A stretch of 64,000 bases of DNA from Deltaproteobacteria bacterium (GTDB taxonomy: Bacteria; Desulfobacterota; Desulfobulbia; Desulfobulbales; Desulfurivibrionaceae), in the NCBI GenBank assembly GCA_021847425.1, contig JAJZRF010000006.1, positions 1 through 64,000 on the forward strand. Reading direction: 5' to 3'. Position 1 is the stretch's first letter; the number at the start of each line of letters is the position of its first letter. The notes below the pieces were generated by a model. That model made no database searches, was not told the DNA's origin, and was given only the letters and a program-made list of their open reading frames with translations. A program made the position numbers and the translations under genes. Below are positions 648-39,434 of this stretch, piece by piece.

Positions 648-3600
648 ATGCATACCCCCGTTTCCAACCCGTCTGCTCTACAGACGGTCGGTTCGGTTCT
701 GGTGGTCGGCGGCGGGGTGGCAGGCGTCCAGGCCGCCCTTGATCTCACCGAACTGGGCTACAAGGTCCATCTGATCGAAAAGTCCGGCGCCATCGGCGGC
801 GTCATGGCCCGGCTGGACAAGACCTTTCCCACCAACGACTGCTCCCTCTGCATCCTGGCCCCCAAGCTGGTGGAGGCTGGGCGCGACCCCAACATCGAAA
901 TCCTGACCCTGTCCGAGCTCGTCGATCTTACCGGTGAGCCGGGCAGCTTCACGGCCACGGTCCGAAAGCAGCCTCGCTACATCGACGAGGAGATCTGCAC
1001 TGGCTGCGGCCAGTGCACCCTCTATTGCCTCAAGCAGATCGGCAACGATTTCAACGAGAATCTCGAGCACAGCCAAGCAGCCCATATCGATTATGCCCAG
1101 GCCGTGCCCACCTCCTATTATATCGACGCCAAGGCATGCCTCAGGCTCAACCATGATACCTGCGGCCTCTGCGCCTCTGTATGCCAGGCCAAGGCCATTC
1201 GTTTCGACGACACGGAAAAGGTGATCGATATTCCGGTGGGCGCGGTGGTTCTGGCCCCCGGCTTCGGCCGGGTCAGCGACGAGGTCATGGCCCGCTACGG
1301 CCTGGGGCAATTCGAGGATGTGGTCACCGCCTTCGAGCACGAGCGGCTGATGTGCGCCTCCGGCCCCACCGGCGGCGAGATTGTGCGGATATCCGACCGG
1401 AAACACCCCAAGAAGATCGCCTTCTTGCAGTGCATCGGCTCCCGCGATGAAAACTGCGGCAACAACTACTGCTCCTCGGTCTGCTGCATGTACGCAATCA
1501 AGCAGGCAACCCTGGCCCGCGAGCACGATCCGGAATGCGAGATCACCCTTTTTTACATGGATGTCCGCACCCACGGCAAGGGGTTTGACGCGGCCAGGGA
1601 GCGGGCGGTGCGGGAAGGCAACTTCCGGGTGATCTACGCCAGGCCGCCCAAGGTGGAGGATGTTTTCGGCGGCGGGCTCCTGCTCACCTGGGCCACCGAG
1701 GACGGCAAGCACCACAGCGAAAAATTCGACCTGGTCGTCCTCTCCCAGGGCCTGGAGGCGCCGGATGGCGCGGAGGACTTGGCCCGGTCGGCCGGCATCG
1801 ACCTCAACCCATACCTCTTCGCCCAAACAAGCATCTACACGCCGCTGGCCACCAGCCGGCCCGGTGTCTATGTTATCGGCGCCTTCCAGGGGCCCAAGGA
1901 CATCCCCGACTCGGTGACCCAGGCGGGCGGGGCGGCGGCGCTCTGCGCGGGCCAGCTTGCCCCGGCCCGGGGCACAAACACCATCAAGGCGAGCTTCCCC
2001 GAGGAGCGGGATATCGCGGGCGAGGAGGTGCGCATCGGCGTGTTTGTCTGCCATTGCGGCATCAACATCGGCGGAGTGGTCAAGGTGCCTTCCGTGGCCG
2101 AATATGCCAAAACCCTGCCCCATGTGGTCTATGCCACGGACAACCTCTATTCCTGTTCCCAGGACACCCAGCGGTTGCTGGTGGAGACCATCCACAAGCA
2201 CCGGCTCAACCGGCTGGTGGTGGCGGCCTGCACCCCGCGCACCCACGAGCCGCTCTTCCAGACGACCCTGCGCGAGGCAGGGCTCAACCGCTCCCTTTTC
2301 GAGATGGCCAACATCCGGGACCAATGCTCCTGGGTGCACATGCACGAACCCGAGGCCGCCACCGAAAAGGCCAAGGACGCGGTGCGCATGGCAGTGGCCA
2401 AGGCCGCGCACCTCACCGCCCTGGCCGAGCAGCAGCTGCCGGTGACCCCGTCCGCCCTGGTGGTGGGCGGGGGGCTGGCCGGGATGACCGCAGCCATGAC
2501 CATCGCGGAGCAGGGCTTCGAGGTGACTCTGGTGGAGAGGGAAAAGGAACTGGGCGGCAGGGTCAAGCTGCTCACCGCCGACCGCTTTGGCCGTGATCCG
2601 CGCAAGGCCGTGGCGGAGCTGATCGCCAAGGTCAAGGCGCACCCGAAGATCACCGTGCACACTAAAGGAACGGTGGCGGCGGTTTCTGGCTATGTGGGCA
2701 ACTTCACCACCACCCTGGACACCGGCAACGGCAGCGTGGTGGTCAACCACGGCGTCGCGGCCATCGCCACCGGCGGCAGGCCCTACGAGCCGAAGCAGTA
2801 TCATTACGGCGAGTCTCCGAAGATCGTCACCCAGTTGGAGCTGGAAAAGAAGCTCGCCGCAACAAGCCAGCCCCTTGCCAAAAACACCAAGCAGGTGGTG
2901 ATGATCCAGTGCGTGGGTTCGCGCGGCGAGGATCTTTCCTATTGCAGCCGGGTCTGCTGCGGCCAGGCGCTGAAAAACAGCCTGCGTCTCAAGAAACTCA
3001 GGCCGGAGCTCGGCATCACCGTGCTCTACCGCGACATGCGGGCCTACGGCTTTCTGGAGGACGACTACCGCGCGGCGCGAGAAGCGGGGGTAATTTTCAC
3101 CCGTTATCAGGTGGAACAAAAACCGGAGGTCATTCCCGGCAAGGGCGGCGCGGTCGCGGTGCGTTACCACGACCCGCTGCTGGCCGAGACCGTGGAGGTG
3201 GACGCCGATCTGCTGGTGCTCTCCGTGGGTATCGTGCCGGAAGACCCCACTGCCCTTGCCCGGATGCTCAAGGTGCCGGTGACGGCGGAGAAGTTCTTCC
3301 TGGAGGCGCATGTCAAGCTGCAGCCGGTGGACCTGCCGGTGGATGGCACCTATGTCTGCGGCCTGGCCCATTCGCCCCGCTCCATGGACGAGACCATCGC
3401 CCAGGCCCAGGCGGCGGCGGGCCGGGCCTGCCACCCTCTGGCCCGCGGTTCCATTACCCCTGCGCCCATCGTCTCCAAGGTCGATCCGGAGTTGTGCATC
3501 GGCTGCGGCGCCTGCGAGTCCTTCTGCCCCTACAAGGCCATCGAGATTTACAAGGAAGCAAAGAGCCGCAAGGCGCGGACGCTTACCGCCTCCTGCAAGG

Positions 3601-11218: not shown

Positions 11219-12514
11219 ATGACCGCAACACCCTTTGAAATAAAAGCCTACCCGGAGATGTGGGCCGGCCTCGACATGGACGTGCCCCGCTTCGACAAGG
11301 CGCGTTTGATGCTGGGGGAGATGTATCAAAAAAGCTTCCTCTCCCAGGCCAAACGGCCAACCGGCATGGCCTACTTTGACAACATGATCGCCGAGATCCA
11401 CGGCGGCCGCATCAAGGAGCTGCTGGCCACCAAGGCGGAAGGCCGCCCGGTGATCGGCACCTTCTGCGTCTACATCCCCGAGGAGATCGTGCTGGCGGCG
11501 GGCGGCATCTGCGTCGGCTTATGCGGCGGCTCCCAAGGCTCGGTGCCGGATGCGGAAACAATCCTGCCGCGCAACATCTGCCCCATGGTCAAGTCCGCTT
11601 TCGGCTTCAAGGCGGGGCGGATCTGTCCCTATTTTCAGGCCGTGGATTTCGTCTACGGCGAGACCACCTGCGACGCCAAGAAAAAGACCTGGGAGATCCT
11701 CGACACCATGGTGCCCACCTATGTCATGGAGATTCCCCAGCTGAAAAGGCAGCGGGATCTCGACCTCTGGCTGGCCGAGGTCAAGGATTTCAAGGCCAAG
11801 GTCGAAGAGGTGGCCGGGCGGACCATTACGGAAACGGATCTGGCCGCCGCCGTCAAGATCATGAACAACAAGCGCAAGGCGCTCCAGCGCCTCAACTCCC
11901 TGCGTCACCACAACCCGACCCCGATCTCCGGCAAGGACGGCCTGCTCATCGAACAGATCGCCTTTTACGACGAGCCGGTGCGCTTTACAAAAAAGGTCAA
12001 TGCGCTCTGCGACGAGCTGGAGGAACGGATCAAGGCCGGGGTGGCGGTGCCGACGAAAAACGCCATCCGGGTGATGGTGGCAGGCACCCCCATGGCCCTG
12101 CCCAACTGGAAGATCCATAACCTGGTGGAGGGGACGGGCGCGGTGATCGTCAACGAGGAGTCGTGCATCGGCACCCGCTACTTCAAGGATTGCATCGACG
12201 AGAACGCCACCGGTATGGAGGGAATGCTCGCCGCGCTCACCGACCGTTACAAGGAGATCGACTGTTCCTGCTTCACCCCCAACGACGAGCGGATCACCCA
12301 GGTGATCAAGGAATTCCGCGACTCGCACGCCCAGGGCATCATCAACTATTCCCTCCAATTCTGCCATACCTACAATATCGAGGAGGTGCGCATCCGCCAG
12401 GCCTGCGAACGGGAGGCAATCCCCTACCTGTTCATCGAGTCGGATTATTCCGCCGAGGATATCGGCCAGCTCCAAACCCGGATCGAGGCCTTTCTTGAGC
12501 AGATCGGGGGGTAA
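11219..12514 (+). CDS. 2-hydroxyacyl-CoA dehydratase-family / double-cubane-cluster-like protein
   Basis: GRPVIGTFCVYIPEEIVLAAGGICVGLCGG; PRNICPMVKSAFGF; Cys-rich HgdB/BcrB-like architecture. Confidence 0.85.
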   Translation: MTATPFEIKAYPEMWAGLDMDVPRFDKARLMLGEMYQKSFLSQAKRPTGMAYFDNMIAEIHGGRIKELLATKAEGRPVIGTFCVYIPEEIVLAAGGICVGLCGGSQGSVPDAETILPRNICPMVKSAFGFKAGRICPYFQAVDFVYGETTCDAKKKTWEILDTMVPTYVMEIPQLKRQRDLDLWLAEVKDFKAKVEEVAGRTITETDLAAAVKIMNNKRKALQRLNSLRHHNPTPISGKDGLLIEQIAFYDEPVRFTKKVNALCDELEERIKAGVAVPTKNAIRVMVAGTPMALPNWKIHNLVEGTGAVIVNEESCIGTRYFKDCIDENATGMEGMLAALTDRYKEIDCSCFTPNDERITQVIKEFRDSHAQGIINYSLQFCHTYNIEEVRIRQACEREAIPYLFIESDYSAEDIGQLQTRIEAFLEQIGG

Positions 12515-12516
12515 CC

Positions 12517-13263
12517 ATGTACATCGGGGTTGATCTGGGCTCCCGGACCGTCAAGATGGCGGTCTGGGACGGGGAGCGGCTGGTGGAGCACCGGATTGCC
12601 GCCTCGGGTTTTGCGCCCCACCGCCAGGCGGAGGAGATGATCGCCGACTACCGGGCCAAGGTCGTGGTGGCCACCGGCTACGGCAGGCATCTGGCGGCCG
12701 GACATTTCGCCGATGCGGTGATCACCGAGATCAGGGCCCATGCCCGAGGCATTTCCCATGAGTTTCCCGGCTGCCCCACCATCGTCGATGTGGGCGGCCA
12801 GGACTCCAAGGTGATCAGTCTGGATGCGGCAGGACGGGTGCGCAATTTCCAGATGAACGACAAATGCGCCGCAGGCACCGGCCGTTTTCTGGAGATCATG
12901 GCCGCTTCCCTGGCATACACCCTGGAGGAATTCGGCCAAGCCGCGCTTGCTGCCGACCACGAGGTGCAGATCAACTCCATGTGCACGGTCTTTGCCGAGT
13001 CCGAGGTGATCTCCATGAAGAACCGGGGCATTGCCCGCGAGCAGATCGCCAGGGCCGTGCATTCCTCGGTGGCCGACCGGCTGGCCGGGATGCTGGCCCG
13101 GCTCGGCCATAGCGATCCTGTGGCCTTTTCCGGCGGGGTGGCGAGAAACCCCTGCATGGTTGACCTGCTCAAAAAAAGAATGCCGGGAGTGCGGGTGCTG
13201 GTGCCGAAGCTGCCGGATATCACCGGCGCCCTGGGCGCGGCCCTGCACGGGACAGGGGTGTGA
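12517..13263 (+). CDS. Acyl-CoA dehydratase activase (BadF/BadG/HgdC-family ATPase)
   Basis: YIGVDLGSRTVKMAVW; TIVDVGGQDSKVI; NDKCAAGTGRFLEIMA; FSGGVARN. Confidence 0.93.
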   Translation: MYIGVDLGSRTVKMAVWDGERLVEHRIAASGFAPHRQAEEMIADYRAKVVVATGYGRHLAAGHFADAVITEIRAHARGISHEFPGCPTIVDVGGQDSKVISLDAAGRVRNFQMNDKCAAGTGRFLEIMAASLAYTLEEFGQAALAADHEVQINSMCTVFAESEVISMKNRGIAREQIARAVHSSVADRLAGMLARLGHSDPVAFSGGVARNPCMVDLLKKRMPGVRVLVPKLPDITGALGAALHGTGV

Positions 13264-25026: not shown

Positions 25027-25497
25027 ATGAAAGCGAAATACAAGCAGATTGCCCGACTACAGCTCGACGCCACCTTGTCGCTGTTCGGCGTAGTAAGGAA
25101 CATGCAGCCTCCGGCAAAGGGCTGGATACGGGCGGTGCGTGAGGCGCTTGGTATGTCCGGCAAGCAGTTAGCCCACCGGCTCAATGTTTCCCAGCCCCGC
25201 GTCCATAGGCTGGAGCAGGACGAGCCCTCCGGCGCGTTGACGCTCAAGACCATGCGCCAAGCGGCCGAGGCGCTGGATTGTATCTTTGTCTATGCTCTTG
25301 TCCCCCGTTCTTCGCTGGAAAACACCGTAAGGGAACAGGCCCGGCTGGTGACCGGCGAGCGGCTGCAACGGGTAGCCCACACCATGCTTCTGGAGGCACA
25401 GGGCCTTTCCGGCAAGGAACAACAAGCCTCCTTGGATGCAGCCATAGAGGAGCTGGTACGAGAGACGCCCACGGATCTTTGGGATATGAAATCATGA
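25027..25497 (+). CDS. Mobile mystery protein A-like XRE-family HTH protein
   Basis: LRxALGMSGKQLAHRLNVSQPRVHRLEQDEPSGALTLKTMRQAAEALDC; paired with Fic protein. Confidence 0.85.
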   Translation: MKAKYKQIARLQLDATLSLFGVVRNMQPPAKGWIRAVREALGMSGKQLAHRLNVSQPRVHRLEQDEPSGALTLKTMRQAAEALDCIFVYALVPRSSLENTVREQARLVTGERLQRVAHTMLLEAQGLSGKEQQASLDAAIEELVRETPTDLWDMKS

Positions 25498-26078
25498 AAT
25501 TCGATACCCCGGAAGGGGCAACCCCGCTTGACCCCGATGAAACTGAAGGGTTGCTGCTTTCTCATATCACCACACGGGCTGAGCTGGATCGCTGGGAACA
25601 GGAAAACATAGCCGAGGCCGAGGCGTGGGCTTTCCGCCGCGCCCATCCTGACATCCTCTCCGATGGTTTTGTCAAGCGACTGCACAAGCGGATGTTCGGC
25701 CATGTCTGGCGCTGGGCCGGATCATATCGGAAAACCGGCAAGAATATTGGCGTACCCGCTTGGCAGATAGCCACGGAGTTGCGTGCCCTCTGTGAGGATT
25801 GCGCGGCCTGGATTGATCATGGTGTCTATCCGCCGGACGAGATAGCCGTGCACTTCCATCACCGGCTTACGGCAATTCATCCCTTTGCCAACGGCAATGG
25901 CCGCCATGCCCGATTGATAACCGACATCCTTCTGGCGCAGCTGCTCAAGCAACCACGCTTTACCTGGGGGAGCGGCAACTTGGTCAATGCCGGGGAATGC
26001 CGGAAACAGTATGTCAATGCACTGCGTGCCGCCGACCGGCATGATTACGGGCCGCTGCTGGCCTTTGTGCGTTCATAG
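25494..26078 (+). CDS. Mobile mystery protein B-like Fic/DOC protein
   Basis: Fic core HPFANGNGRHAR; start overlaps mmpA stop. Confidence 0.9.
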   Translation: MKFDTPEGATPLDPDETEGLLLSHITTRAELDRWEQENIAEAEAWAFRRAHPDILSDGFVKRLHKRMFGHVWRWAGSYRKTGKNIGVPAWQIATELRALCEDCAAWIDHGVYPPDEIAVHFHHRLTAIHPFANGNGRHARLITDILLAQLLKQPRFTWGSGNLVNAGECRKQYVNALRAADRHDYGPLLAFVRS

Positions 26079-26243: not shown

Positions 26244-29200
26244 ACGTCCCGTTAAGCCCGCGGTGGCAAACTTGACCGATTCGCTGGACATCATCACCGG
26301 CAACTTCTCAGCCACCTGCCCGGTGGCAAACGCCGTGCCGCCCCGCGCAGCGATAGGCCCATCCTTCTCAGCCACCTGCCCGGTGGCAAACTGCCGAAAA
26401 GACCTTGTTCATGGCGAGTGAGTCTTCTCAGCCACCTGCCCGGTGGCAAACTTATTCCAGAATTAATAGATGCAATATTTTTACTTCTCAGCCACCTGCC
26501 CGGTGGCAAACAGCAAAGCTTCTCGCTCTGCCTTGTGCACTCCCTTCTCAGCCACCTGCCCGGTGGCAAACATCCAGCTGAGCGTTGCTCCGACATCAAT
26601 TCACTTCTCAGCCACCTGCCCGGTGGCAAACACCCTGTCGTCGGCATAAGACTTTGTGCGGTCCTTCTCAGCCACCTGCCCGGTGGCAAACGCCGTGGAG
26701 GACTGGATTAATCCCCGCAGCCGCTTCTCAGCCACCTGCCCGGTGGCAAACCTTGATTCCTGCTTTCCAGGATTTTTCACTACCTTCTCAGCCACCTGCC
26801 CGGTGGCAAACGCAATGGCCCGGTCCATTTCATCCCGACTCCACTTCTCAGCCACCTGCCCGGTGGCAAACGTTCCTTTATAATACCCATCATTCTTGTT
26901 TTTCTTCTCAGCCACCTGCCCGGTGGCAAACTTTGGCAGATGCGCAAAGGACATTTGCGAGCTCTTCTCAGCCACCTGCCCGGTGGCAAACTCGGGAGCC
27001 ATGCGGAAACGAAAAGAGCAACACTTCTCAGCCACCTGCCCGGTGGCAAACTGCTCGGGTACCCCGTTGAAATGATATCTATCCTTCTCAGCCACCTGCC
27101 CGGTGGCAAACGGCTTGAAGTAATCAGGCACGAACCCGCCCAACTTCTCAGCCACCTGCCCGGTGGCAAACGGTGGTTACTTCCACCGGGACTCCGGCAT
27201 TCACTTCTCAGCCACCTGCCCGGTGGCAAACCCACAGTTGAGCATGTCGGGCAATTGCTGCAACTTCTCAGCCACCTGCCCGGTGGCAAACTCCGGCCTT
27301 GACGCCAGCAGGGCAAACTCCAGCTTCTCAGCCACCTGCCCGGTGGCAAACATCCCGCAGGAAGGGTGGACAACCACCGGCCACTTCTCAGCCACCTGCC
27401 CGGTGGCAAACGATCTCCCCGGCCAACATCTGCATGATCACCTCTTCTCAGCCACCTGCCCGGTGGCAAACGGATTTTCCGGCCGAATCAAACAGCGACG
27501 TGCAGCTTCTCAGCCACCTGCCCGGTGGCAAACCGGAGTCAGGTTTGTTATCCGCACATCATATTCTTCTCAGCCACCTGCCCGGTGGCAAACCACGACC
27601 GCCGCCAATTTCGCTATCGCCCCCACTTCTCAGCCACCTGCCCGGTGGCAAACTGGCCGCCTGGATCGCCTCGGCGTCAACATTCCTTCTCAGCCACCTG
27701 CCCGGTGGCAAACAGAGTGGGATATGGAAGGCAACCCGATCAATGCTTCTCAGCCACCTGCCCGGTGGCAAACGTATGTGTCAGGGAATTATGCCTACGC
27801 CATTGCTTCTCAGCCACCTGCCCGGTGGCAAACGGTGGGGGTTGTTTCGATACGGATCGTCGGCTCTTCTCAGCCACCTGCCCGGTGGCAAACGACATTA
27901 ATGATGAGGCGGCGCGTATTCTTCGCTTCTCAGCCACCTGCCCGGTGGCAAACGAGATTTATTTCGGGCTTCGACTTGTCGTGCCCTTCTCAGCCACCTG
28001 CCCGGTGGCAAACTTTATTGGCTAGTTTCTCGGCTAGTTTTCTACCTTCTCAGCCACCTGCCCGGTGGCAAACAATGACGATATGCTGCCCAGGCCGTAC
28101 TATGGTCTTCTCAGCCACCTGCCCGGTGGCAAACTTTTTGCTCATTTTTATCCTCCTAGTCGTCCACTTCTCAGCCACCTGCCCGGTGGCAAACCGACGT
28201 ACTCCATGGCATGCCGGTGATGTCCTCTTCTCAGCCACCTGCCCGGTGGCAAACAATCCCCGCCCGTCTCCTGAACTTTTTCGTTGCTTCTCAGCCACCT
28301 GCCCGGTGGCAAACGGCCTGCTACAGCGCGGAGCGGGTGCATTGCGCTTCTCAGCCACCTGCCCGGTGGCAAACTGTTTCCTCCCTAGGTTTGCCGCACG
28401 ACAGGACTTCTCAGCCACCTGCCCGGTGGCAAACCATCATCGGCAATGCCGATAGCCTCGCCGGGCCTTCTCAGCCACCTGCCCGGTGGCAAACTTATCC
28501 CCGGATGGCAAACCCACACGTTTTGACTTCTCAGCCACCTGCCCGGTGGCAAACGGTCCGCCCATGGCCGCACCTATGCCCAAAATCTTCTCAGCCACCT
28601 GCCCGGTGGCAAACTCAGTTCCGCGATGCGACCCCCTCCGGGGACTCTTCTCAGCCACCTGCCCGGTGGCAAACGCCTTCAGCTACGGACCATCCCAGAC
28701 CACCTGCTTCTCAGCCACCTGCCCGGTGGCAAACACAGCCAACCACCGTTATCCTGCCACCCCGGCCTTCTCAGCCACCTGCCCGGTGGCAAAAGGCCAG
28801 CGGGTAGAGCTGGGCTGCCGCCCGCACTTCTCAGCCACCTGCCCGGTGGCAAACTGAGGAAGCTGACCCGTGGCGTGAAGAAGCATCTTCTCAGCCACCT
28901 GCCCGGTGGCAAACGGTTGCATCCTGGGGCAGTCCACGGCGCTCCACTTCTCAGCCACCTGCCCGGTGGCAAACGGCGGGGGCCGGCGGAAAAGTAAAAT
29001 GTCGATCTTCTCAGCCACCTGCCCGGTGGCAAACAACAACCTGGCTCGCGGTCCGGTGCGATGACTCTTCTCAGCCACCTGCCCGGTGGCAAACGTGTTT
29101 TTCGCCACCGGCGCCAGCGCCGACCACTTCTCAGCCACCTGCCCGGTGGCAAACTTGAGCTGAGACGCGGGAAACCGAAACAGGAGCTTCTCAGCCACCT

Positions 29201-30895
29201 GCCCGGTGGCAAACCGACAAGATGGATTTTGCCCCCGTCCCGCACGCTTCTCAGCCACCTGCCCGGTGGCAAACGCGGTGATCGGGGTGGAGACGTAGGA
29301 GATGGCCTTCTCAGCCACCTGCCCGGTGGCAAACCAAACCCACACGTTTTGAGGTTGCCGTGGTGACTTCTCAGCCACCTGCCCGGTGGCAAACCTGGTG
29401 GATTGCAGGAGGCCTTACCCCGCAGCCTTCTCAGCCACCTGCCCGGTGGCAAACATCGCCATCGACCGGCAGCCAGCCGCCATCCACTTCTCAGCCACCT
29501 GCCCGGTGGCAAACTCGGCGATCAGTTGCGCCCAGGGCTGGCGTATCTTCTCAGCCACCTGCCCGGTGGCAAACGGGGCCTGGCTGCTGCACTCCGGATA
29601 TACCGACTTCTCAGCCACCTGCCCGGTGGCAAACGAGCGAATCAAGAATTTTTTTCCTTTTGTGGACTTCTCAGCCACCTGCCCGGTGGCAAACGTTCAG
29701 GGATGATGCGCTGGCACAATTCGAGACTTCTCAGCCACCTGCCCGGTGGCAAACGGCCAATATCGTATGCGCCTCAATTTGTTTCTCTTCTCAGCCACCT
29801 GCCCGGTGGCAAACTTCTGGGATGGATTCCTGAGCAGGATTGTCCACTTCTCAGCCACCTGCCCGGTGGCAAACGTCAAACGCCGTTGTTGCGATATTGC
29901 CCCACACTTCTCAGCCACCTGCCCGGTGGCAAACGGAGACAAGGTAACGCTCACCATCAGCAGAGACTTCTCAGCCACCTGCCCGGTGGCAAACGAGTTG
30001 ACAATCTCATCGCTGTCGGTATACGACTTCTCAGCCACCTGCCCGGTGGCAAACAACCAAAAGCGAAGAAAGAATTATGCGCGTATCTTCTCAGCCACCT
30101 GCCCGGTGGCAAACATGCACACACATGTAGTATATATGTAGGCATACTTCTCAGCCACCTGCCCGGTGGCAAACGTGTCGCCGTACTTGCACCAGATCGA
30201 GAAGCTGCTTCTCAGCCACCTGCCCGGTGGCAAACGATTGAGCGCGAATTGGCGGATTATCTCACCTCTTCTCAGCCACCTGCCCGGTGGCAAACGTACA
30301 TGGCGTTTTTGGCGATTTTGGTATTTACTTCTCAGCCACCTGCCCGGTGGCAAACGGCCCGCAAGTTCCAGCTCGCTCCATTCACTTCTTCTCAGCCACC
30401 TGCCCGGTGGCAAACAATACTCACTGATTTCAAGGCAGACACAGGGTCTTCTCAGCCACCTGCCCGGTGGCAAACGACTCGCCGGGTCGGCTTTAGAGAT
30501 TTGTTAACTTCTCAGCCACCTGCCCGGTGGCAAACTGGCATGGAACAGGGCCACTCCGTCGCGCATGCTTCTCAGCCACCTGCCCGGTGGCAAACGATCA
30601 TGGATGCCTCTTTTTTCCCATCGGTGCCTTCTCAGCCACCTGCCCGGTGGCAAACCCGCGCAGCCCATGCAGTACAGCGTTGGAATGCTTCTCAGCCACC
30701 TGCCCGGTGGCAAACCTGTTGTACGGCGCCGGCCTGCGCCTCATGGACTTCTCAGCCACCTGCCCGGTGGCAAACTTGGAAGGTGTCCACATAGTGTCCA
30801 CACTTTACTTCTCAGCCACCTGCCCGGTGGCAAACAACCGGCAGCTACTGCAAGCGCATACCTCGCTCTTCTCAGCCACCTGCCCGGTGGCAAAC
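26244..30895 (-). CRISPR. Type I-F-like CRISPR array: 77 full 28-bp repeats plus one degenerate terminal repeat, 77 spacers
   Basis: Plus-strand repeat CTTCTCAGCCACCTGCCCGGTGGCAAAC (crRNA sense GTTTGCCACCGGGCAGGTGGCTGAGAAG). Spacers 32 bp except 34 bp at 27472-27505, 33 bp at 28074-28106 and 30175-30207. Degenerate repeat 26244-26271 at the trailer end. Confidence 0.99.
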
Positions 30896-30978
30896 TAGAG
30901 CTTATCTCTAATAAGTTATTAGAATTCAATATGTTATCCATACAACAAACAGAAAACCTTCGTTTTTCAAATGGCCAG

Positions 30979-30991
30979 CAACCTATTGATT
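30979..30991 (-). promoter_or_regulatory. IHF-consensus site in CRISPR leader
   Basis: CAACCTATTGATT fits YAANNNNTTGATW exactly; reverse complement is AATCAATAGGTTG. Confidence 0.6.
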
Positions 30992-30992
30992 T

Positions 30993-31943
30993 TCATAAGA
31001 TTTTTTTTGCAAAATCCGCTACAAAGGTAAACACCTTATCCAAGACATCCTTCTTCTGACACGTCTCAATTAATGCATTCCGAAAATCTTTTTGAGATAT
31101 TTTCAACTCGCCGAAGAGAAATGCTAGCGGCATGACATGGGCATCTTTGATAAGATCGGCAACGTCAAACACGAGTGCGCCTCTCCGGGTTTTTCCATGC
31201 AGCAAGGGTAAAGAAAAACTGATTCCCAGACCATTGAGGACAACCGCGGCATAGCCATATGCGATATAATTGCCGTGATCAATAAACCCATTGACAATAT
31301 CTTCTCGCGATTCCTGTTTCCCTTTACCTTCTTCCCTGACAAATTTGTGCAACCCAACCCCTTCGGCCAGTCTCGCATAGAGGGCCTTCGCCCAACGTGC
31401 TTCGGCAAGAAGGAGCGTTTCTGTATTTTGGGCGGCATTGATCTGAGCCGAAAATCCTGCGGCAAGGCCATCGTCAATTTTGATGCCATTGCGAATCAGC
31501 TCAATATTTTCATCCCATGCTTCCATGGCCCAATCCAAACGTTTTTGCAGAAGCGCTTTTGCCAAATCCAGTCGCTTCGGTTCATCAAACCAGGTCTTTA
31601 CCCAGGCCTGCATGTACTCCGTGGGCCGATATTCGCTCTGAGGGCTCAAAAACACCTGATCTACTGATGAAAACAGGGGGGAGCCACCACTGCCGCAAAA
31701 CCCGACGAGAACGTTTGATTCAGCCATCCTGCGCGCGGCGGCATCAGTAATCGAGGTACCTTTACCAAGCAACACGAATGCCGTATTGCGCTCCGGAATG
31801 TTGAAATAACGTTCCACGTCCTCGCCTGTATCCGTCAGATAAACAATCCTGTTGTCTTTTTGCATAACGCGAACGTGCTCCAAGTAGAATACATTCGCCC
31901 GTTTCGACAAAAGAATCTGACGGGGCTTCACTTGGCGGTTCAT
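30993..31943 (-). CDS. cas1: Cas1 (type I-F)
   Basis: MNRQVKPRQILLSKRANVFYLEH..; catalytic-type LLLAEARWAK, LPLLHGKTRRGALVFDVADLIKD. Confidence 0.95.
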   Translation of the reverse strand: MNRQVKPRQILLSKRANVFYLEHVRVMQKDNRIVYLTDTGEDVERYFNIPERNTAFVLLGKGTSITDAAARRMAESNVLVGFCGSGGSPLFSSVDQVFLSPQSEYRPTEYMQAWVKTWFDEPKRLDLAKALLQKRLDWAMEAWDENIELIRNGIKIDDGLAAGFSAQINAAQNTETLLLAEARWAKALYARLAEGVGLHKFVREEGKGKQESREDIVNGFIDHGNYIAYGYAAVVLNGLGISFSLPLLHGKTRRGALVFDVADLIKDAHVMPLAFLFGELKISQKDFRNALIETCQKKDVLDKVFTFVADFAKKIL

Positions 31944-32500
31944 GGTAGGTCCGGCACGGCAAAAGGTCTTGTTGTAACCGAGAGGCCGTAACTGTCTGGC
32001 TTGCATTCTCCCTGATGATCCGCCGCAGGGCCGATCTCGACATAAAGTCCAAAACGCTGCCCGGAGGAAGCGCTGGAGAGAATGAAGAACGGCAGTTTGT
32101 TCTCGTCGGCCTGGGCGATCCTTCGAGTCCTCAGTGCGTGATCCGGATCCCTGTCGGCTTTGCGAGTCGGGATGCGAAAACGCGAATACCGTTTCCATGG
32201 ACCATCGAACTTTTCGGGAACTGCGCGTGGGTAACCGATCCGGCCGTAATCCCTGATTGCCGGGTTGTCGACGACAGCGTCAACGAGCAGGTCCAAATCC
32301 CCGCGAGTCGGTGAAAAGACCCGGATGCATGCGAAAAGGCTGTTCTCCTTTCCCGGCAGGGCAAGGGCGAATTTTCCCGGATAGCGACGAAAGGCACCGT
32401 GCAGCACCCGCAGGATTGCGCCCGCCACCACCGGGCGGGAGGGCCCTCCGCCCTTTTCGTTGCCGGGGATCTCAATGTTGACGTAGTGTGCAGGTCTCAT
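31940..32500 (-). CDS. cas6f: Cas6f/Csy4 crRNA endoribonuclease
   Basis: MRPAHYVNIEIPGNEKGG..ILRVLHGAF (candidate catalytic His)..; SYGLSVTTRPFAVPDLP C-terminus; 186 aa. Confidence 0.92.
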   Translation of the reverse strand: MRPAHYVNIEIPGNEKGGGPSRPVVAGAILRVLHGAFRRYPGKFALALPGKENSLFACIRVFSPTRGDLDLLVDAVVDNPAIRDYGRIGYPRAVPEKFDGPWKRYSRFRIPTRKADRDPDHALRTRRIAQADENKLPFFILSSASSGQRFGLYVEIGPAADHQGECKPDSYGLSVTTRPFAVPDLP

Positions 32501-32501
32501 C

Positions 32502-33596
32502 TCAAGACTCCTTTTTTCCCTTTTCAGATTTTTCTCCATCGGAAAATACACCGCCTCGAATCAGGCTGGCAGTCATGAACATTCCTTCCGGTGATCCTGG
32601 GTCAAGCGTGTTGAGCCTTTTAGCAAGATCGAAGGCCGAGAGCTTTTTGCCTTTCCGGAAGAATTTCTGCGCATCGAGGCTGGCTCCGTTTGGCTCGATG
32701 GGAATGGGGCGATTGAAAATTCCATACTCTGGATACCAGGTGTCGATAGTACGAAGCGCATTAGCGACCTTCTGATCCCGCAGGGCGGCGTGCCCCATGA
32801 CACGAATGGCATCCTTGCCGTCCGCTTTTTTTGCGTCAGTTCTGCCGAGGCAATAGAGAGAACGGGCAAAGCCACGGGGTTTGTCTTCAAGATAGTTTTG
32901 AGAACAAAATATCTCCATGGCGCCCTGCATGCCGAGATCCATCCGGGCCGTTACTTCCAGTGCCGCACTATCGTGACCACGCAATCCATCCGCAATGAAT
33001 TTGGCCACTGCCTTTTCCGCATCGCTATAATTGTCGAAAGTAGGCAAAGGAATGGACTGTGCATCCGCCTCTCCCACATTCTTGCCAGCTACCACTACAC
33101 TAATTGTTATTTTCCGAGCGACCAGCCGGTTCCGCCACAGCCATCGGCCGTTAAGGATGTTGCGGGCATAACGCGATGCAATTTCATCTACTCCTTGGTC
33201 ACTTTTAGCGCGTTGGATAAAGCCATCGACACTCTGGCGCAATTCTCCAACAAGGGTATCGTCGTCTCCTTTACTGGGCGCACAGGCGAACAAGGCGTTT
33301 TTAAGGTCGAGAAAACGGATGGAAAACCGGACGATCACCGCCGAGGCATTGGGATCTGTCTTGGCGGTGTCGGTCGTCTGGATATTGGAGACCTCCTCGC
33401 GGGCCGCAGATCCTGAGGTCGAGGTTTCAGCATCGCCCTTTTTGTTGACGTTCTGCGTTCCCCGGATGCCGTGCCGCAAAACCGGCACAGGGGTCAGTTC
33501 TTCACCAATTTCGTTATAGAAAAGGGCGTCGGTAATGACAATCCCACGCTGGAAAGAAAGAACACCCGGCAGTTTCTTGAATTCTGTGTCACTCAT
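32502..33596 (-). CDS. csy3: Csy3/Cas7f backbone protein
   Basis: LPGVLSFQRGIVITDALFY..; NILNGRWLWRNRLVA; 364 aa. Confidence 0.95.
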   Translation of the reverse strand: MSDTEFKKLPGVLSFQRGIVITDALFYNEIGEELTPVPVLRHGIRGTQNVNKKGDAETSTSGSAAREEVSNIQTTDTAKTDPNASAVIVRFSIRFLDLKNALFACAPSKGDDDTLVGELRQSVDGFIQRAKSDQGVDEIASRYARNILNGRWLWRNRLVARKITISVVVAGKNVGEADAQSIPLPTFDNYSDAEKAVAKFIADGLRGHDSAALEVTARMDLGMQGAMEIFCSQNYLEDKPRGFARSLYCLGRTDAKKADGKDAIRVMGHAALRDQKVANALRTIDTWYPEYGIFNRPIPIEPNGASLDAQKFFRKGKKLSAFDLAKRLNTLDPGSPEGMFMTASLIRGGVFSDGEKSEKGKKES

Positions 33597-34399
33597 GATT
33601 GGATCTCCTTTTGTTTTATGATGAAAACATCGTCACGAAGCCATTGATGATGCCAAAACGGGATGGGCCGCGCGCCATAATCCCGAAGAGAAACATACTG
33701 AACAAGTCCGACCAGGGATTCGCAGAAGGCATGGGGGGAGCCCTCGCGAACGCCGCCACGCTGCTCGAATCCGGTGATGGCCGCATACCCCAAAACAGTC
33801 GGCACGAGCCAGGAGTTCGGAAGCGTTCCGGGCTCGGGGGCATCCTGTCTGAATCCGGTTGCCTTGATTACCGCATCGAGCGGGTCACCTTGTGACAGCA
33901 TAAGATCAGAACGTTCGATAAGCCAGTAGCCGGTTCTCAACCGCTTCCTGAGCTTTTCGTCGTCTCCGATTATCTCCGGATCACCACTGCCGATCACTTG
34001 TCCGCCTGCGATGCGCGCTGATTTCATAAAATCATTCACGGCGTCGATATCGAAGGCATCATCAAAGGAAAACACCAGGGACAGAATGAGATGACAGGAT
34101 GCCGTTGGTTGCAAGGAGAGGGCATGCGGGTTCTTGTTTGAGTAATCTTCTCCGTTGATAAATGTTGTACCCCGTCGCTGCTGAGGATGAAGCCGTCCAT
34201 AAAAAGCGATTCCCTTTTCCCCCAGCAGTTGGGCGTCATGGTGAATAACGGCCACCCCATCCGAAAATGCACCTATATTGCGACCGAGATTATGGGCGAA
34301 CATGTTGAGTGCCATCACCGGCGCGGCATTGATGAGCCAGGAGGTTGCATGGGCATTAGCCGCCTGGACTTTAATTCTTGGCAGATACAGATAATTCAT
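33593..34399 (-). CDS. csy2: Csy2/Cas5f
   Basis: YLYLPRIKVQAANAHATSWLINAAPVMALNMFAHNLGR; WLVPTVLGYAAITGFEQRGGVR..; 268 aa. Confidence 0.92.
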   Translation of the reverse strand: MNYLYLPRIKVQAANAHATSWLINAAPVMALNMFAHNLGRNIGAFSDGVAVIHHDAQLLGEKGIAFYGRLHPQQRRGTTFINGEDYSNKNPHALSLQPTASCHLILSLVFSFDDAFDIDAVNDFMKSARIAGGQVIGSGDPEIIGDDEKLRKRLRTGYWLIERSDLMLSQGDPLDAVIKATGFRQDAPEPGTLPNSWLVPTVLGYAAITGFEQRGGVREGSPHAFCESLVGLVQYVSLRDYGARPIPFWHHQWLRDDVFIIKQKEIQS

Positions 34400-35487
34400 C
34401 GCAGACCCTCCTCAATCCATTTAGCGATCCTGGCAATTGCGCCGTCATCGAGTCCCAGGCCACCTTGTTCGTCCTTGAACTCATAAGCGGCAATCTGGTT
34501 CGCCAGCCGCCAGGAAAACCCGCGCTCCCAATCCTTGGTTCGCTCGGCGAGGTCGATCACACCCCGAATGATCTCATCCACCTTGCCGGACACCAAAGGC
34601 TCCCCGTTCTCAGGCAGATATTCCCTGTGACCATCGAGGACCTTCAAAGCTTTAGCCCCTCGCGAGAGGATGGCCGAGGAAAATCTCTTCGAGAACGTTT
34701 CTTCCTTTTCCCGTGTTTTCATGTCGGTCGGAATTCGGCCTTCGTTTTTGGCCTTCTCCGCTTCGCGCCACGCCCTGTATTCAAAAACTAGCTCACGAGG
34801 GACAGCCAAGGAAATACCCTTGTAGTGGATTGACAAAGCTGTTTTGATGTCTTTGGATTCGGTAGGACTTTCAAAAAAAAGAGGCCGTTGCATCTCTCGG
34901 ACAAGCCCTCCCACATTTTGTGGATTTGCACCGCCTATTCCAAACTGCGCTTGTCGCAATCGAACGCCCTTATCCTCGCTAAGTTGGTTATGCGCTTTTA
35001 CCCGTGTATTGATGATTGCATTCAGGCCACCAGCGCCAATCGGCGTAAGAGCAACATAGCTTTCATCTATCGGGATCAACAACTGCCGCATTCGAGGCGA
35101 TATAAACTCACAATTAGACTCAAGGCGCGACGAGAAGGCGGATATGCATGCATCACGTATCTGCTCCGCTTTAGCCTCTGACTTGGGTTGCTCGCCCGCA
35201 AAGACAGCCCTTATCTGCTTGGCAATATTTGCTGTCTTGTCAACATTCTTGGTGTAATCCCGGTCAATTTGAACACCGTGCGCCATCAACGTTCGCACCG
35301 ACACATACGGCAGTAACAGTGCATCTTCGCCGGACAGTCTCACGCCACCTCCCGCAGCGTTCGAGTTTACCGATTTAAACGAAAAATGAACCATGCCTTC
35401 CGCCAGATTACGATATTGGTCGATATCGTAGTTGTTCCAGGCAGCTTCTTGCTCAGCCCTCTTTTCTTCCTCTGTTTTTTTTACCAT
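34396..35487 (-). CDS. csy1: Csy1/Cas8f, compact/divergent
   Basis: RLRQAQFGIGGANPQNVGGLVREMQRPLFFESPP-like motif (compare Csy1 FGGTKPQNISQLN); 363 aa; position between cas2-3 and csy2. Confidence 0.85.
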   Translation of the reverse strand: MVKKTEEEKRAEQEAAWNNYDIDQYRNLAEGMVHFSFKSVNSNAAGGGVRLSGEDALLLPYVSVRTLMAHGVQIDRDYTKNVDKTANIAKQIRAVFAGEQPKSEAKAEQIRDACISAFSSRLESNCEFISPRMRQLLIPIDESYVALTPIGAGGLNAIINTRVKAHNQLSEDKGVRLRQAQFGIGGANPQNVGGLVREMQRPLFFESPTESKDIKTALSIHYKGISLAVPRELVFEYRAWREAEKAKNEGRIPTDMKTREKEETFSKRFSSAILSRGAKALKVLDGHREYLPENGEPLVSGKVDEIIRGVIDLAERTKDWERGFSWRLANQIAAYEFKDEQGGLGLDDGAIARIAKWIEEGLR

Positions 35488-35541
35488 ATCATCCCTCGTT
35501 GCCTCCTTGTTGTTCTACAAGTCGATATTTCCTCATGGCCG

Positions 35542-38500
35542 TCAGTTGGATAAGTAAAAGCCGAAGGAATGATCAAAGACAATCCGCATCCGGCCCTGGT
35601 TATCAGCGTCCTTGCTTGAATAGTGCACAATCTCGAAGCGCAAGCCTTCTTCTTCGCGAATTCCGAATTCAAGACAACGCTCGAGCAAGTCTTCAATATC
35701 AAAACACAACCAATCATTGGTGGCCCGCCCAAGGTGGTTCACCCATCCATTTTTTGAGACAAAGCACTGCTCGTAATTGACGATTTCCAGTCGCTGAAAA
35801 CACTCATCGCCATCGGCATCCTTCACCAGCCGCCAGGTCTGTTTCGGCTCTCCGGACCGTAAAGGATATTTGCGATAAAACCCCTCGGTCATCCACACAA
35901 CATTGGCTTGCGAGAGATCGCACAGACCTTTCATGGGATCTTTGAGGGTTATTTTGATGCTTTCGTCGTCCAATTGTCCCAACCGATGTCCTGCAAATCG
36001 CAGCCGGGCGTCAAGACCGTTCTTGAGATCTTCCCAGCGTAGCAACTCAGCCAGGTCGTGGTTGTCGTACCTGAGCCTGGTCGACTCCAATCCCGGTCGG
36101 CAAAAACAAATATCCTGGCCTCTGGCCCAGCGGGCATTGAATTGCAGGATGGCCACATTCGGTTCGGAAACCGTCACCCGCCGGTGCCGGTTGACACGAC
36201 CGGCCGTCTGGACAATCGACTGAGAACTGGATGGCTCGATGACCGCCCAGTCGAAATCGTGATCCCGGCCTATCTCTTCCACGGGAGTCGCCGCGACGAT
36301 AAAAGGTATGCTCGAAAAAGAAGAACGGGCCACTATGTCGGCAATCTCCGGGTCGGCGTTGATATTTTCATTTCCCTTCTTGCGATTCAAAAGGAAATCA
36401 AGCCGCTGCTCTTTGATAAAGCGCTGCACCACGAAATCCTGCGAGTGATAGCAGGCGATCCTAGCTTGCGGCAGACGGTCCGACAAAAATCTGGCGATTT
36501 GAATCGCGGTTTTTATATTAGCCACCCGGACCAGCCCGAAGGAGATCGTTTTTTCTGTCCCGCCGAAACCCCAGGCATTGCGGTCGTGCATCATATTGAC
36601 GGCTTCCGCCACCGCCTCAAGCCAGAAAGATTCACCCCTTCCGGCGACTAATTGCAGAACCGGACGCCTGTATGTTTTTTTGCCCATTTCCAACAGCATC
36701 CGGTTGATATGCCCTTGGTATTCCAACGCGAAGTTTTCGCTTGTGATAACCGATGGATCCACAAGATCGTCAATTACGGCAACGGAAAAATCAGGGGCTT
36801 TACCAAAGAGTTGCGCTCGCATCGAGATGCCGCTTTGATAAGCTTCATGAACCGCCTGCGCCACAGGAAAGGCAAGCGTGGCTGAGGAACAGATCAGATT
36901 ACGTCCGGAAAGCCCCACCATCTGAATCAGGCGCAACACAGCCACCATGGCAGTCGGATCATAGCTGTCGATCTCATCGAGCACAAGATCGCTGTCCAGA
37001 AGCCGCAACAGCGCCGAGACATGGTTCCCCTGGCGATTCAGCTCCCCGGCCGAGATAATAAAATCAATCGTCGAGGCTAATACAGGCGCCCCAAGAATTC
37101 GGGTGATAAAAGGTTTGCGATCCGACAAATGCGCCAACCATTCCGGCAACGATTGGTTGAGCCACTCTTCCTCAAAGAACCCATCGCTCTCGAATTCGGC
37201 TTCTATCTCCTTTCCATCTATATCCATGCGACCCGCTTCATGCAGTCTCGTTGCGACCTTGTCACCGATAACGGTCGCCATCTCGTCCTTGCCGATGCCG
37301 AGTTGGAGGCTCAGGGCATCGCCGGTTTGCAGGGTTAGGGTGCGCTGGTTCAAGGCAACCGCAAAGCGAACCCTAACCGCCTGACCAAGGGCGCAGGCGC
37401 ATTTGGCGTTCATACGCGTTTTGCCAGCACCGGTGCTGGCAACATTAAACACCAACACTGGCGCTTCGCTTGTTTGCCGAATACTATGGAATATATTGGC
37501 GGCTCGGTTCTGCCAGGCAAAAGGGCCTCGATCGTCGGAAGGTTCCAGAATCCTCTCGACAGCCTCTTCGGAAAGAGAAGGCAGCCTCAGCGTGGCCAAA
37601 CGGTAAACCGTTTTTGCTGCTACCTGGGACACATGCTCCAGATGCCAGAGTAGAGGCTGGTTATATCCTCGTTTTGTGCCATTGCCGATCTTGGAAGTGT
37701 TGGCATAAAGTCCGCTGTCAACTTGGCCATAATTTCCCTCTTCACGGGCCGAAACTAGGTGATCTGCAAAAATGAGTGCTGCCCTTGTCCACACCGCAAG
37801 GCCTCGCCAGTATCCGGGAGTTCGCTTCTCAGCGATTTTTTTGATTCGCTCAAGGGTTGCCGCGTATGTCTCATGCCATCGCATGGGGAGATCCCCGACT
37901 GGGCTGATTTCTGGTCGGCTATCCCGGAGAAAATAGCGTTCCCGCGAGGGTATTCCTAGACCGCTTACAGGCCCGAATAATCTGTGGTGCGACACCACGA
38001 GAAAATCGAGTACGTCATGTACCGAGCCAATTCCCTGTTTGAGCGAAAGTTCTTGCAGGCACCTTTGATTTGCCAAAGAACTCCACGATTGCTTTGTGTT
38101 CTGCTCTTTCCGCAATTCCTGCATGAGCCGCATGGAGACCCACTCATGGCGGACCGGATCGGCCTCCCCCTGAAATGCATTTGACAAAGACCTTGCAAGC
38201 TTTTCCTGAAAATGAATCGTTGCTTTTCCCGTGTCGTGAGCCAAGCCACCCGCACGGGCAAGCAAGGCGGCAAGACGGACCCACGTTGGGAAAGGTTCTT
38301 TGGGCTTTTTGACCCGCATATATCCGCAAGGAAAATGACCATCATGTCCGAATGGTCGCTTTGAACCCACGACCCAAAGAAGTTTCATTCTCCGGCGCCC
38401 ATCGTTACGATAACAGGCCACCGTTGTTTGACGAGTTGCGCTCCGTTTTAGCGCGGCTCGCATCTCTCGCATCCCTTCTTCTGTGATAGGAGTCGCCCAA

Positions 38501-38595
38501 GAAGTCTCGCCCGTGCGAATCGCATAGCTGTCAAGCGTTGCCCGTGTTTTTTTGATCGCTCGCTTTTCACAAGCAGAAATAATTATGATATGCAT
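35542..38595 (-). CDS. cas2-3: Cas2-Cas3 fusion (type I-F)
   Basis: N-terminal Cas2-like MHIIIISACEKRAIKKTRATLDSYAIRTGETSWATPIT; HD motif GLAHDTGKATIHFQ; Walker A STGAGKTRMN; DEIDSYD. Confidence 0.95.
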   Translation of the reverse strand: MHIIIISACEKRAIKKTRATLDSYAIRTGETSWATPITEEGMREMRAALKRSATRQTTVACYRNDGRRRMKLLWVVGSKRPFGHDGHFPCGYMRVKKPKEPFPTWVRLAALLARAGGLAHDTGKATIHFQEKLARSLSNAFQGEADPVRHEWVSMRLMQELRKEQNTKQSWSSLANQRCLQELSLKQGIGSVHDVLDFLVVSHHRLFGPVSGLGIPSRERYFLRDSRPEISPVGDLPMRWHETYAATLERIKKIAEKRTPGYWRGLAVWTRAALIFADHLVSAREEGNYGQVDSGLYANTSKIGNGTKRGYNQPLLWHLEHVSQVAAKTVYRLATLRLPSLSEEAVERILEPSDDRGPFAWQNRAANIFHSIRQTSEAPVLVFNVASTGAGKTRMNAKCACALGQAVRVRFAVALNQRTLTLQTGDALSLQLGIGKDEMATVIGDKVATRLHEAGRMDIDGKEIEAEFESDGFFEEEWLNQSLPEWLAHLSDRKPFITRILGAPVLASTIDFIISAGELNRQGNHVSALLRLLDSDLVLDEIDSYDPTAMVAVLRLIQMVGLSGRNLICSSATLAFPVAQAVHEAYQSGISMRAQLFGKAPDFSVAVIDDLVDPSVITSENFALEYQGHINRMLLEMGKKTYRRPVLQLVAGRGESFWLEAVAEAVNMMHDRNAWGFGGTEKTISFGLVRVANIKTAIQIARFLSDRLPQARIACYHSQDFVVQRFIKEQRLDFLLNRKKGNENINADPEIADIVARSSFSSIPFIVAATPVEEIGRDHDFDWAVIEPSSSQSIVQTAGRVNRHRRVTVSEPNVAILQFNARWARGQDICFCRPGLESTRLRYDNHDLAELLRWEDLKNGLDARLRFAGHRLGQLDDESIKITLKDPMKGLCDLSQANVVWMTEGFYRKYPLRSGEPKQTWRLVKDADGDECFQRLEIVNYEQCFVSKNGWVNHLGRATNDWLCFDIEDLLERCLEFGIREEEGLRFEIVHYSSKDADNQGRMRIVFDHSFGFYLSN

Positions 38596-38615: not shown

Positions 38616-39434
38616 TTATTTTATAAGGGAGGGGGGCTCCGACCCATCCAGATAATTCCCTTCCGTAACCACCCCCTCCCCTGTTTCCTGCTCCAACTTC
38701 TCCCGCGCCTCCCCGGCAATGCCGCCGCCCTTGCGGGCCGCCACCTTGTTCTCCGCAAAACCACGCGCATCCCGCTTCCGGGCGATCTCGGTGGTGGCAG
38801 CCTCGCCCAGCATGGAGAAGATCATTTCCAGGCCGGTCATGTGGTCCCGCAGGTTTTCCCGCGCCAGGCCTTTCAGATTCTTGTGTTCCGATGGGGTCAG
38901 CCCAAAGGCGGCCCGAGAAATTTCCTCGGTCAGGATGGTCTGTTCCGGCTCGGCATTAACACCCCGTTTTTGCCATTCCTCGGTCAGCTCGGCCCGGATG
39001 GCGATGCCACGCATCCGCTTGCCAATCCAGGCTTCGGAATAGCCCTTGGCTCGGTACAACTCCCTGGTCCGGATAAGGGCCTGTTCCGGGTCTGCCATCT
39101 CCCGCATCCGTTCGCAGGCCGCCTTGGCCAACCACCGCCTGAACGGCTCCGCCTTGGGCGAGGGGATGGACTGGATGAGCCGGAAAATGCCTTCGGCATT
39201 GGCGCAATCAACCAGCTCCCGCCCGCCCGGAGTATCCAGCCAAAGAGGGGTGACAAACTGCCTCCACCCTCTGGCCAAACCACGGTCACGCCGGCACATT
39301 TTCTTGATGTACTCGCCGGGGTCCAGCGAATCGGTCAACGCCCCGACAACATCATCAACCGCAAACCACCATTCGTTGTTGTGCATGGTTCGCCGGATTT
39401 TCATGTCATCAAGAAGCGTAAGGCTGGTTTCCAT
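38616..39434 (-). CDS. BRO-N family / phage-antirepressor-like (DinD-like) protein
   Basis: IRRTMHNNEWWFAVDDVVGALTDSLDPGEYIKKM..; FRRWLAKAACERMREMADPE. Confidence 0.8.
   Translation of the reverse strand: METSLTLLDDMKIRRTMHNNEWWFAVDDVVGALTDSLDPGEYIKKMCRRDRGLARGWRQFVTPLWLDTPGGRELVDCANAEGIFRLIQSIPSPKAEPFRRWLAKAACERMREMADPEQALIRTRELYRAKGYSEAWIGKRMRGIAIRAELTEEWQKRGVNAEPEQTILTEEISRAAFGLTPSEHKNLKGLARENLRDHMTGLEMIFSMLGEAATTEIARKRDARGFAENKVAARKGGGIAGEAREKLEQETGEGVVTEGNYLDGSEPPSLIK

What the first reader, a model, noticed from the sequence alone, without database searches (positions are those of the whole stretch)
28495..29366. Two spacers tile the same protospacer region and reveal the PAM internally
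Seen: spacer 28495-28526 (ttatccccggatggCAAACCCACACGTTTTGA) ends with the same 18 nt that begin spacer 29335-29366 (CAAACCCACACGTTTTGAggttgccgtggtga). The second spacer shows that GG follows the first protospacer on this strand, which is 5'-CC in crRNA sense, the canonical I-F PAM. Inference: both came from one invader or close relatives, and acquisition used a CC PAM.
Basis: partly seen in the sequence, partly recalled or inferred. Interest (0 to 1): 0.65.

Follow-up and report, generated by a model that had tools for sequence, protein, structure and literature searches.

The report
Two overlapping type I-F CRISPR spacers
A bacterium's long CRISPR memory holds two entries copied 14 bases apart from the same unidentified invader; together with about 20 other entries that match related phages, they show that this ordinary type I-F system picks its targets next to the usual CC signal.

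Summary
The array (77 perfect or near-perfect 28-nt repeats, 76 spacers, plus one older spacer behind a decayed repeat) contains spacers 28495-28526 and 29335-29366. They share 18 nt end to start, and no other pair shares 11 nt or more. A complete type I-F cas operon adjoins the array. The leader is at the high-coordinate end, so the 29335 spacer is the newer.

The pair alone is weak evidence for the PAM, because GG makes up 8.3% of dinucleotides in the phage contigs. I tested it independently. 21 spacers have recognisable protospacers in temperate-phage contigs of same-genus genomes and in IMG/VR. 13 of 21 best hits carry GG directly 3' in array + sense (5'-CC in crRNA sense; P about 1e-9); 15 of 21 have at least one GG-flanked hit. 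So the CC PAM is supported.

The pair's invader was not found in any collection, so "one invader or close relatives" remains an inference, though a strong one. The newer spacer spans the older one's intact CC PAM and 18 PAM-proximal bases, so it was not captured from an escape mutant in those bases. Such overlaps are expected when many spacers sample one 40-kb phage. This is ordinary type I-F biology; cas1-last gene order is a minor variant.

The parts
28495..28526 (-). Older spacer of the pair (40th of 76 from the leader); crRNA-sense sequence is the reverse complement
29335..29366 (-). Newer spacer of the pair (26th from the leader; 13 spacers lie between the two); covers the older protospacer's CC PAM and 18 PAM-proximal nt
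26304..30895 (-). CRISPR array: 77 repeats of 28 nt (+ sense CTTCTCAGCCACCTGCCCGGTGGCAAAC; one variant at 28767-28794), 76 spacers (73 of 32 nt, two of 33, one of 34)
26244..26303 (-). Decayed terminal repeat (15/28 identical) and one further 32-nt spacer at the leader-distal end
30896..30992 (-). Leader between cas1 and the first repeat; IHF-type site AATCAATAGGTTG starting 96 bp upstream of the first repeat
30993..31949 (-). cas1 (Cas1f), 318 aa, adjacent to the leader
   Evidence: TIGR03637 401 bits
31940..32551 (-). cas6f (csy4)
   Evidence: Pfam Cas_Csy4 64 bits
32502..33596 (-). cas7f (csy3)
   Evidence: TIGR02566 255 bits
33593..34399 (-). cas5f (csy2), short (268 aa)
   Evidence: 94 bits NCBIfam (below cut-off), 135 bits PADLOC
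34396..35487 (-). cas8f (csy1), short and divergent (363 aa)
   Evidence: PADLOC Cas8f 173 bits; no NCBIfam or Pfam hit
35542..38595 (-). cas2-3 fusion (Cas3f), 1017 aa
   Evidence: TIGR02562 746 bits

Best explanation
[quoted passage not shown] The acquisition complex (Cas1 with Cas2-3) chose protospacers next to 5'-CC (crRNA sense), written as GG 3' in the array's + reading. Shown: the overlap, the I-F genes, the leader end and the CC PAM. Inferred: that the source was a phage, and that the second capture came from an invader whose first target site (CC plus 18 PAM-proximal nt) was still intact, as in interference-driven or simply independent acquisition rather than priming by a PAM or seed escape mutant.
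For: The only overlapping pair, 18/18 nt, about 1e-6 expected by chance. I-F cas set. Leader at 30.9 kb, from the IHF site and the decayed distal repeat, from cas1-leader-repeat in the same orientation in Nitrospirae MAG locus L053, and from 17 of 18 phage-matching spacers lying in the leader-proximal half. GG 3' of 13/21 best protospacer hits, P about 1e-9, with shuffled spacers giving 0-1 hits. Targets are tailed-phage contigs with portal, terminase, capsid, tail and integrase genes; one (G005:C10, 39,917 nt) has identical 40-nt ends and carries 11 protospacers. Published I-F behaviour matches: 90-93% GG PAM, about 90% 32-nt spacers, slipping, and interference-driven acquisition (PMC5059440); 5'-protospacer-GG-3' and clustering near the primed site (PMC4117759).
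Against: The element carrying the 46-mer was not found anywhere searched, so shared origin and phage nature are not shown for this pair. The intact-PAM argument covers only CC plus 18 nt; the older protospacer's other 14 nt could already have mutated. It also assumes strictly leader-end insertion.
Confidence: 0.88

Rival explanations
1. The two spacers come from two different elements (diverged phages) that share a conserved gene segment, so the merged 46-mer never existed as one molecule.
For: Neighbouring spacers match several related but distinct phages, and the 46-mer itself was not found.
Against: 18/18 identity across DNA where related phages usually differ by several bases per 32 nt. 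GG also falls exactly where the verified PAM rule requires it.
Confidence: 0.2
2. Primed acquisition: the older spacer, partly mismatched to an escape mutant, directed Cas1-Cas2-3 to capture the overlapping newer spacer next to its own target.
For: I-F priming clusters new spacers near the primed protospacer (PMC4117759). Protospacers on G005:C10 are clustered (median nearest neighbour 219 nt, P = 0.007), and two protospacers abut 1 nt apart on opposite strands in two phages (spacers 29095 and 30175).
Against: The newer spacer shows CC and all 18 PAM-proximal nt of the older target unmutated. Clustering is partly a detection bias toward conserved genes. A same-strand overlap also arises by uniform sampling, with P about 0.1 for 20 spacers and 0.35 for 40 spacers on one 40-kb genome.
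Confidence: 0.25
3. An artefact of array rearrangement: one spacer is a recombination or duplication product of the other.
For: General knowledge only: arrays can recombine through their repeats. No tool result supports it here.
Against: Both spacers are full 32-nt units between perfect repeats, overlap end to start with unique flanking parts, and no other spacer is duplicated.
Confidence: 0.01

Closest known systems
Type I-F (I-F1) CRISPR-Cas of Pectobacterium atrosepticum (PMC5059440, PMC4117759)
   Same: 32-nt spacers with a few longer, Cas2-3 fusion, GG (5'-CC in crRNA sense) PAM, slipped PAMs, clustered captures from one element.
   Different: Here cas1 lies last in the operon next to the leader (cas2-3, csy1, csy2, csy3, cas6f, cas1) instead of first (canonical order from general knowledge), and Csy1 and Csy2 are short and divergent.
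Type I-F locus of Nitrospirae MAG J031 (L053, RFGT01000012.1)
   Same: Same gene order with cas1 last, Cas1 81% identical, similar repeat right after the leader.
   Different: The contig ends within the second repeat, so its array cannot be compared; the one visible spacer is different.

Membership tests
Type I-F CRISPR-Cas | Cas1f and fused Cas2-3 (Cas3f) | tested here: met
   TIGR03637 401 bits, TIGR02562 746 bits
Type I-F CRISPR-Cas | Cas7f (Csy3), Cas6f (Csy4), Cas5f (Csy2) | tested here: met
   (Csy2 and Csy4 below their NCBIfam cut-offs, but Csy2 135 bits in PADLOC and Csy4 above the Pfam cut-off)
Type I-F CRISPR-Cas | Cas8f (Csy1) | tested here: met
   PADLOC Cas8f 173 bits over residues 22-241; divergent, no NCBIfam or Pfam hit
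Type I-F CRISPR-Cas | 28-nt repeat, 32-nt spacers | tested here: met
   76 of 77 repeats identical, 73/76 spacers 32 nt
Type I-F CRISPR-Cas | 5'-CC PAM (GG 3' in target-strand reading) | tested here: met
   13/21, P = 9.5e-10
Type I-F1 canonical operon | cas1 first in the operon | tested here: not met
   cas1 is last, next to the leader; same in L053. The canonical order is from general knowledge.
Type I-F CRISPR-Cas | active interference and acquisition | not testable with these tools
   genome sequence only

The most novel reading that the evidence does not exclude
The targeted element carries a mimic of this system's own repeat: the older protospacer contains CCCGG-A-TGGCAAAC, the repeat's end CCCGGTGGCAAAC plus one inserted base. 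Two captures at one spot could then reflect a phage-borne repeat or small RNA decoy that interferes with this CRISPR system.
Probability: 0.03. Interest if true: 0.6.

Novelty: new member of a known kind. Interest (0 to 1): 0.2.

Why it matters
It gives an internally and externally checked PAM for a type I-F system in an uncultured lineage with an unusual gene order, and a small dated record (older spacer, then newer spacer over its intact PAM) of repeated capture from one invader. It does not change what is known about type I-F acquisition.

Tried and rejected
Searching for the invader of the pair: the 18-nt core exactly in IMG/VR; a 24-nt core in genome contigs; up to 1 mismatch in 146 relatives and 395 phylum genomes (only chance single-mismatch hits without flank similarity); BLAST in phages and plasmids (no credible hit); back-translated DGKPTRFEVA-type patterns; 16-nt parts (all chance by flank comparison). 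None found it. Two phage proteins as bait gave no IMG/VR relatives. Repeat mimicry of the older spacer: the best repeat similarity among 77 spacers, but P = 0.06 after allowing for 77 tries, so not claimed. Clustering of protospacers as proof of priming: rejected as confounded by where matches can be detected. Laying the whole genome in the Python box was not available.

Full report
Observation. The array at 26304-30895 has 77 repeats of 28 nt and 76 spacers, 73 of them 32 nt. A further 32-nt spacer sits behind a decayed repeat (15/28) at 26244-26303. Spacers 28495-28526 and 29335-29366 read as the finding says and share 18 nt, end to start. Among all pairs on both strands no other shares 11 nt or more; about 1e-6 such pairs are expected by chance.

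Setting. On the minus strand the genes run cas2-3 (35542-38595), csy1/cas8f (34396-35487), csy2, csy3, cas6f, cas1 (30993-31949), then leader and array. The leader is at the high-coordinate end. It has a perfect IHF-type site AATCAATAGGTTG starting 96 bp upstream of the first repeat, and the decayed repeat is at the other end. A Nitrospirae MAG (L053) has the same gene order, with leader and first repeats directly after cas1. So crRNA sense is the minus strand, and the 29335 spacer is newer than the 28495 spacer, with 13 other spacers between them.

PAM. In crRNA sense the merged sequence reads ...CAACC|TCAAAACG..., so CC precedes the older protospacer. Taken alone this is weak: GG is 8.3% of dinucleotides in the phage contigs. 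I therefore searched all 77 spacers against same-genus and class genomes, phage and plasmid records, and phage contigs fetched by portal-protein similarity from IMG/VR. In 41 loci (452 kb), 60 hits with at most 8 mismatches came from 21 spacers, while shuffled spacers gave 0-1 hits. One best hit per spacer: 13/21 have GG at +1+2 (P = 9.5e-10), 10/15 at 6 mismatches or fewer, 7/11 at 5 or fewer; 15/21 have at least one GG-flanked hit. Some exceptions are informative. Spacer 30536 has G|GC in nearly every phage, a GG straddling the protospacer end, as in the slipping described for I-F (PMC5059440). Spacers 29455 and 30296 have GG in IMG/VR locus L023 but GA and CG in the same-genus phage G005:C10 at near-equal match, consistent with PAM change in that phage. 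Three others (27412, 27594, 27654) match with 8 mismatches only and may be chance.

Targets. G005:C10 is a 39,917-nt temperate phage (portal, terminase, capsid-protease, tail, integrase) with identical 40-nt, tRNA-like ends and 11 protospacers, including one perfect. Others are G001:C177, G013:C45 and G002:C50. Of the 18 spacers with credible matches, 17 lie in the leader-proximal half (P = 9e-5), as expected if that half is newer.

The pair's invader. It was not found in any collection at the sensitivities listed under Tried and rejected. The frame LSPDGKPTRFEVAVV is open across the 46-mer, but no relative was identified.

Interpretation. Two captures overlapping by 18 nt on one strand are not surprising: with 20 to 40 spacers drawn from one 40-kb genome the chance of at least one same-strand pair sharing 11 nt or more is 0.10 to 0.35. 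The newer spacer contains the older target's CC and its 18 PAM-proximal nt intact, so the second capture was not from a mutant that escaped by PAM or seed change in those bases. That fits interference-driven or independent capture (PMC5059440) better than priming by an escape mutant, though 14 nt are unseen and insertion is assumed to be at the leader.

Verdict. The shared invader is likely but not shown. The system is ordinary type I-F apart from the position of cas1 and short, divergent Csy1 and Csy2.

Noticed in passing
L020 (G013:C45) 2144-3139; L021 (G002:C50) 11980-12978: Integron integrase genes (TIGR02249, 400 and 368 bits) sit beside the phage terminase (L020) or between portal and a terminase-like gene (L021) of two phage-like contigs. 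Spacers 30356 and 30716 target the L020 gene, and 28735 and 29035 the DNA just upstream, with GG PAMs.
   Followed up: partly
window 30993-38595; L053: Type I-F operon with cas1 last and short Csy1/Csy2. The repeat is absent from 57 relatives searched, which suggests horizontal gain; an 81% identical Cas1 with the same order is in a Nitrospirae MAG.
   Followed up: partly
window 38616-39434: BRO-N domain protein (PADLOC phage-defence candidate PDC-S13, 330 bits) directly upstream of cas2-3 on the same strand.
   Followed up: no
window 25027-26078: HTH protein and Fic-family 'mobile mystery protein B' pair just beyond the leader-distal end of the array.
   Followed up: no
window 28500-28513: The older spacer contains CCCGGATGGCAAAC, the repeat's end plus one inserted base; P = 0.06 over 77 spacers.
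   Followed up: partly
L016 12462-12527; L018 4653-4718: Spacers 29095 and 30175 match abutting protospacers 1 nt apart on opposite strands in two related phages.
   Followed up: partly
L016 18453-18484 and 18863-18894 versus L023 1523-1554 and 1110-1141: The same protospacers carry GG in L023 but GA and CG in G005:C10, suggesting PAM escape in the latter.
   Followed up: partly
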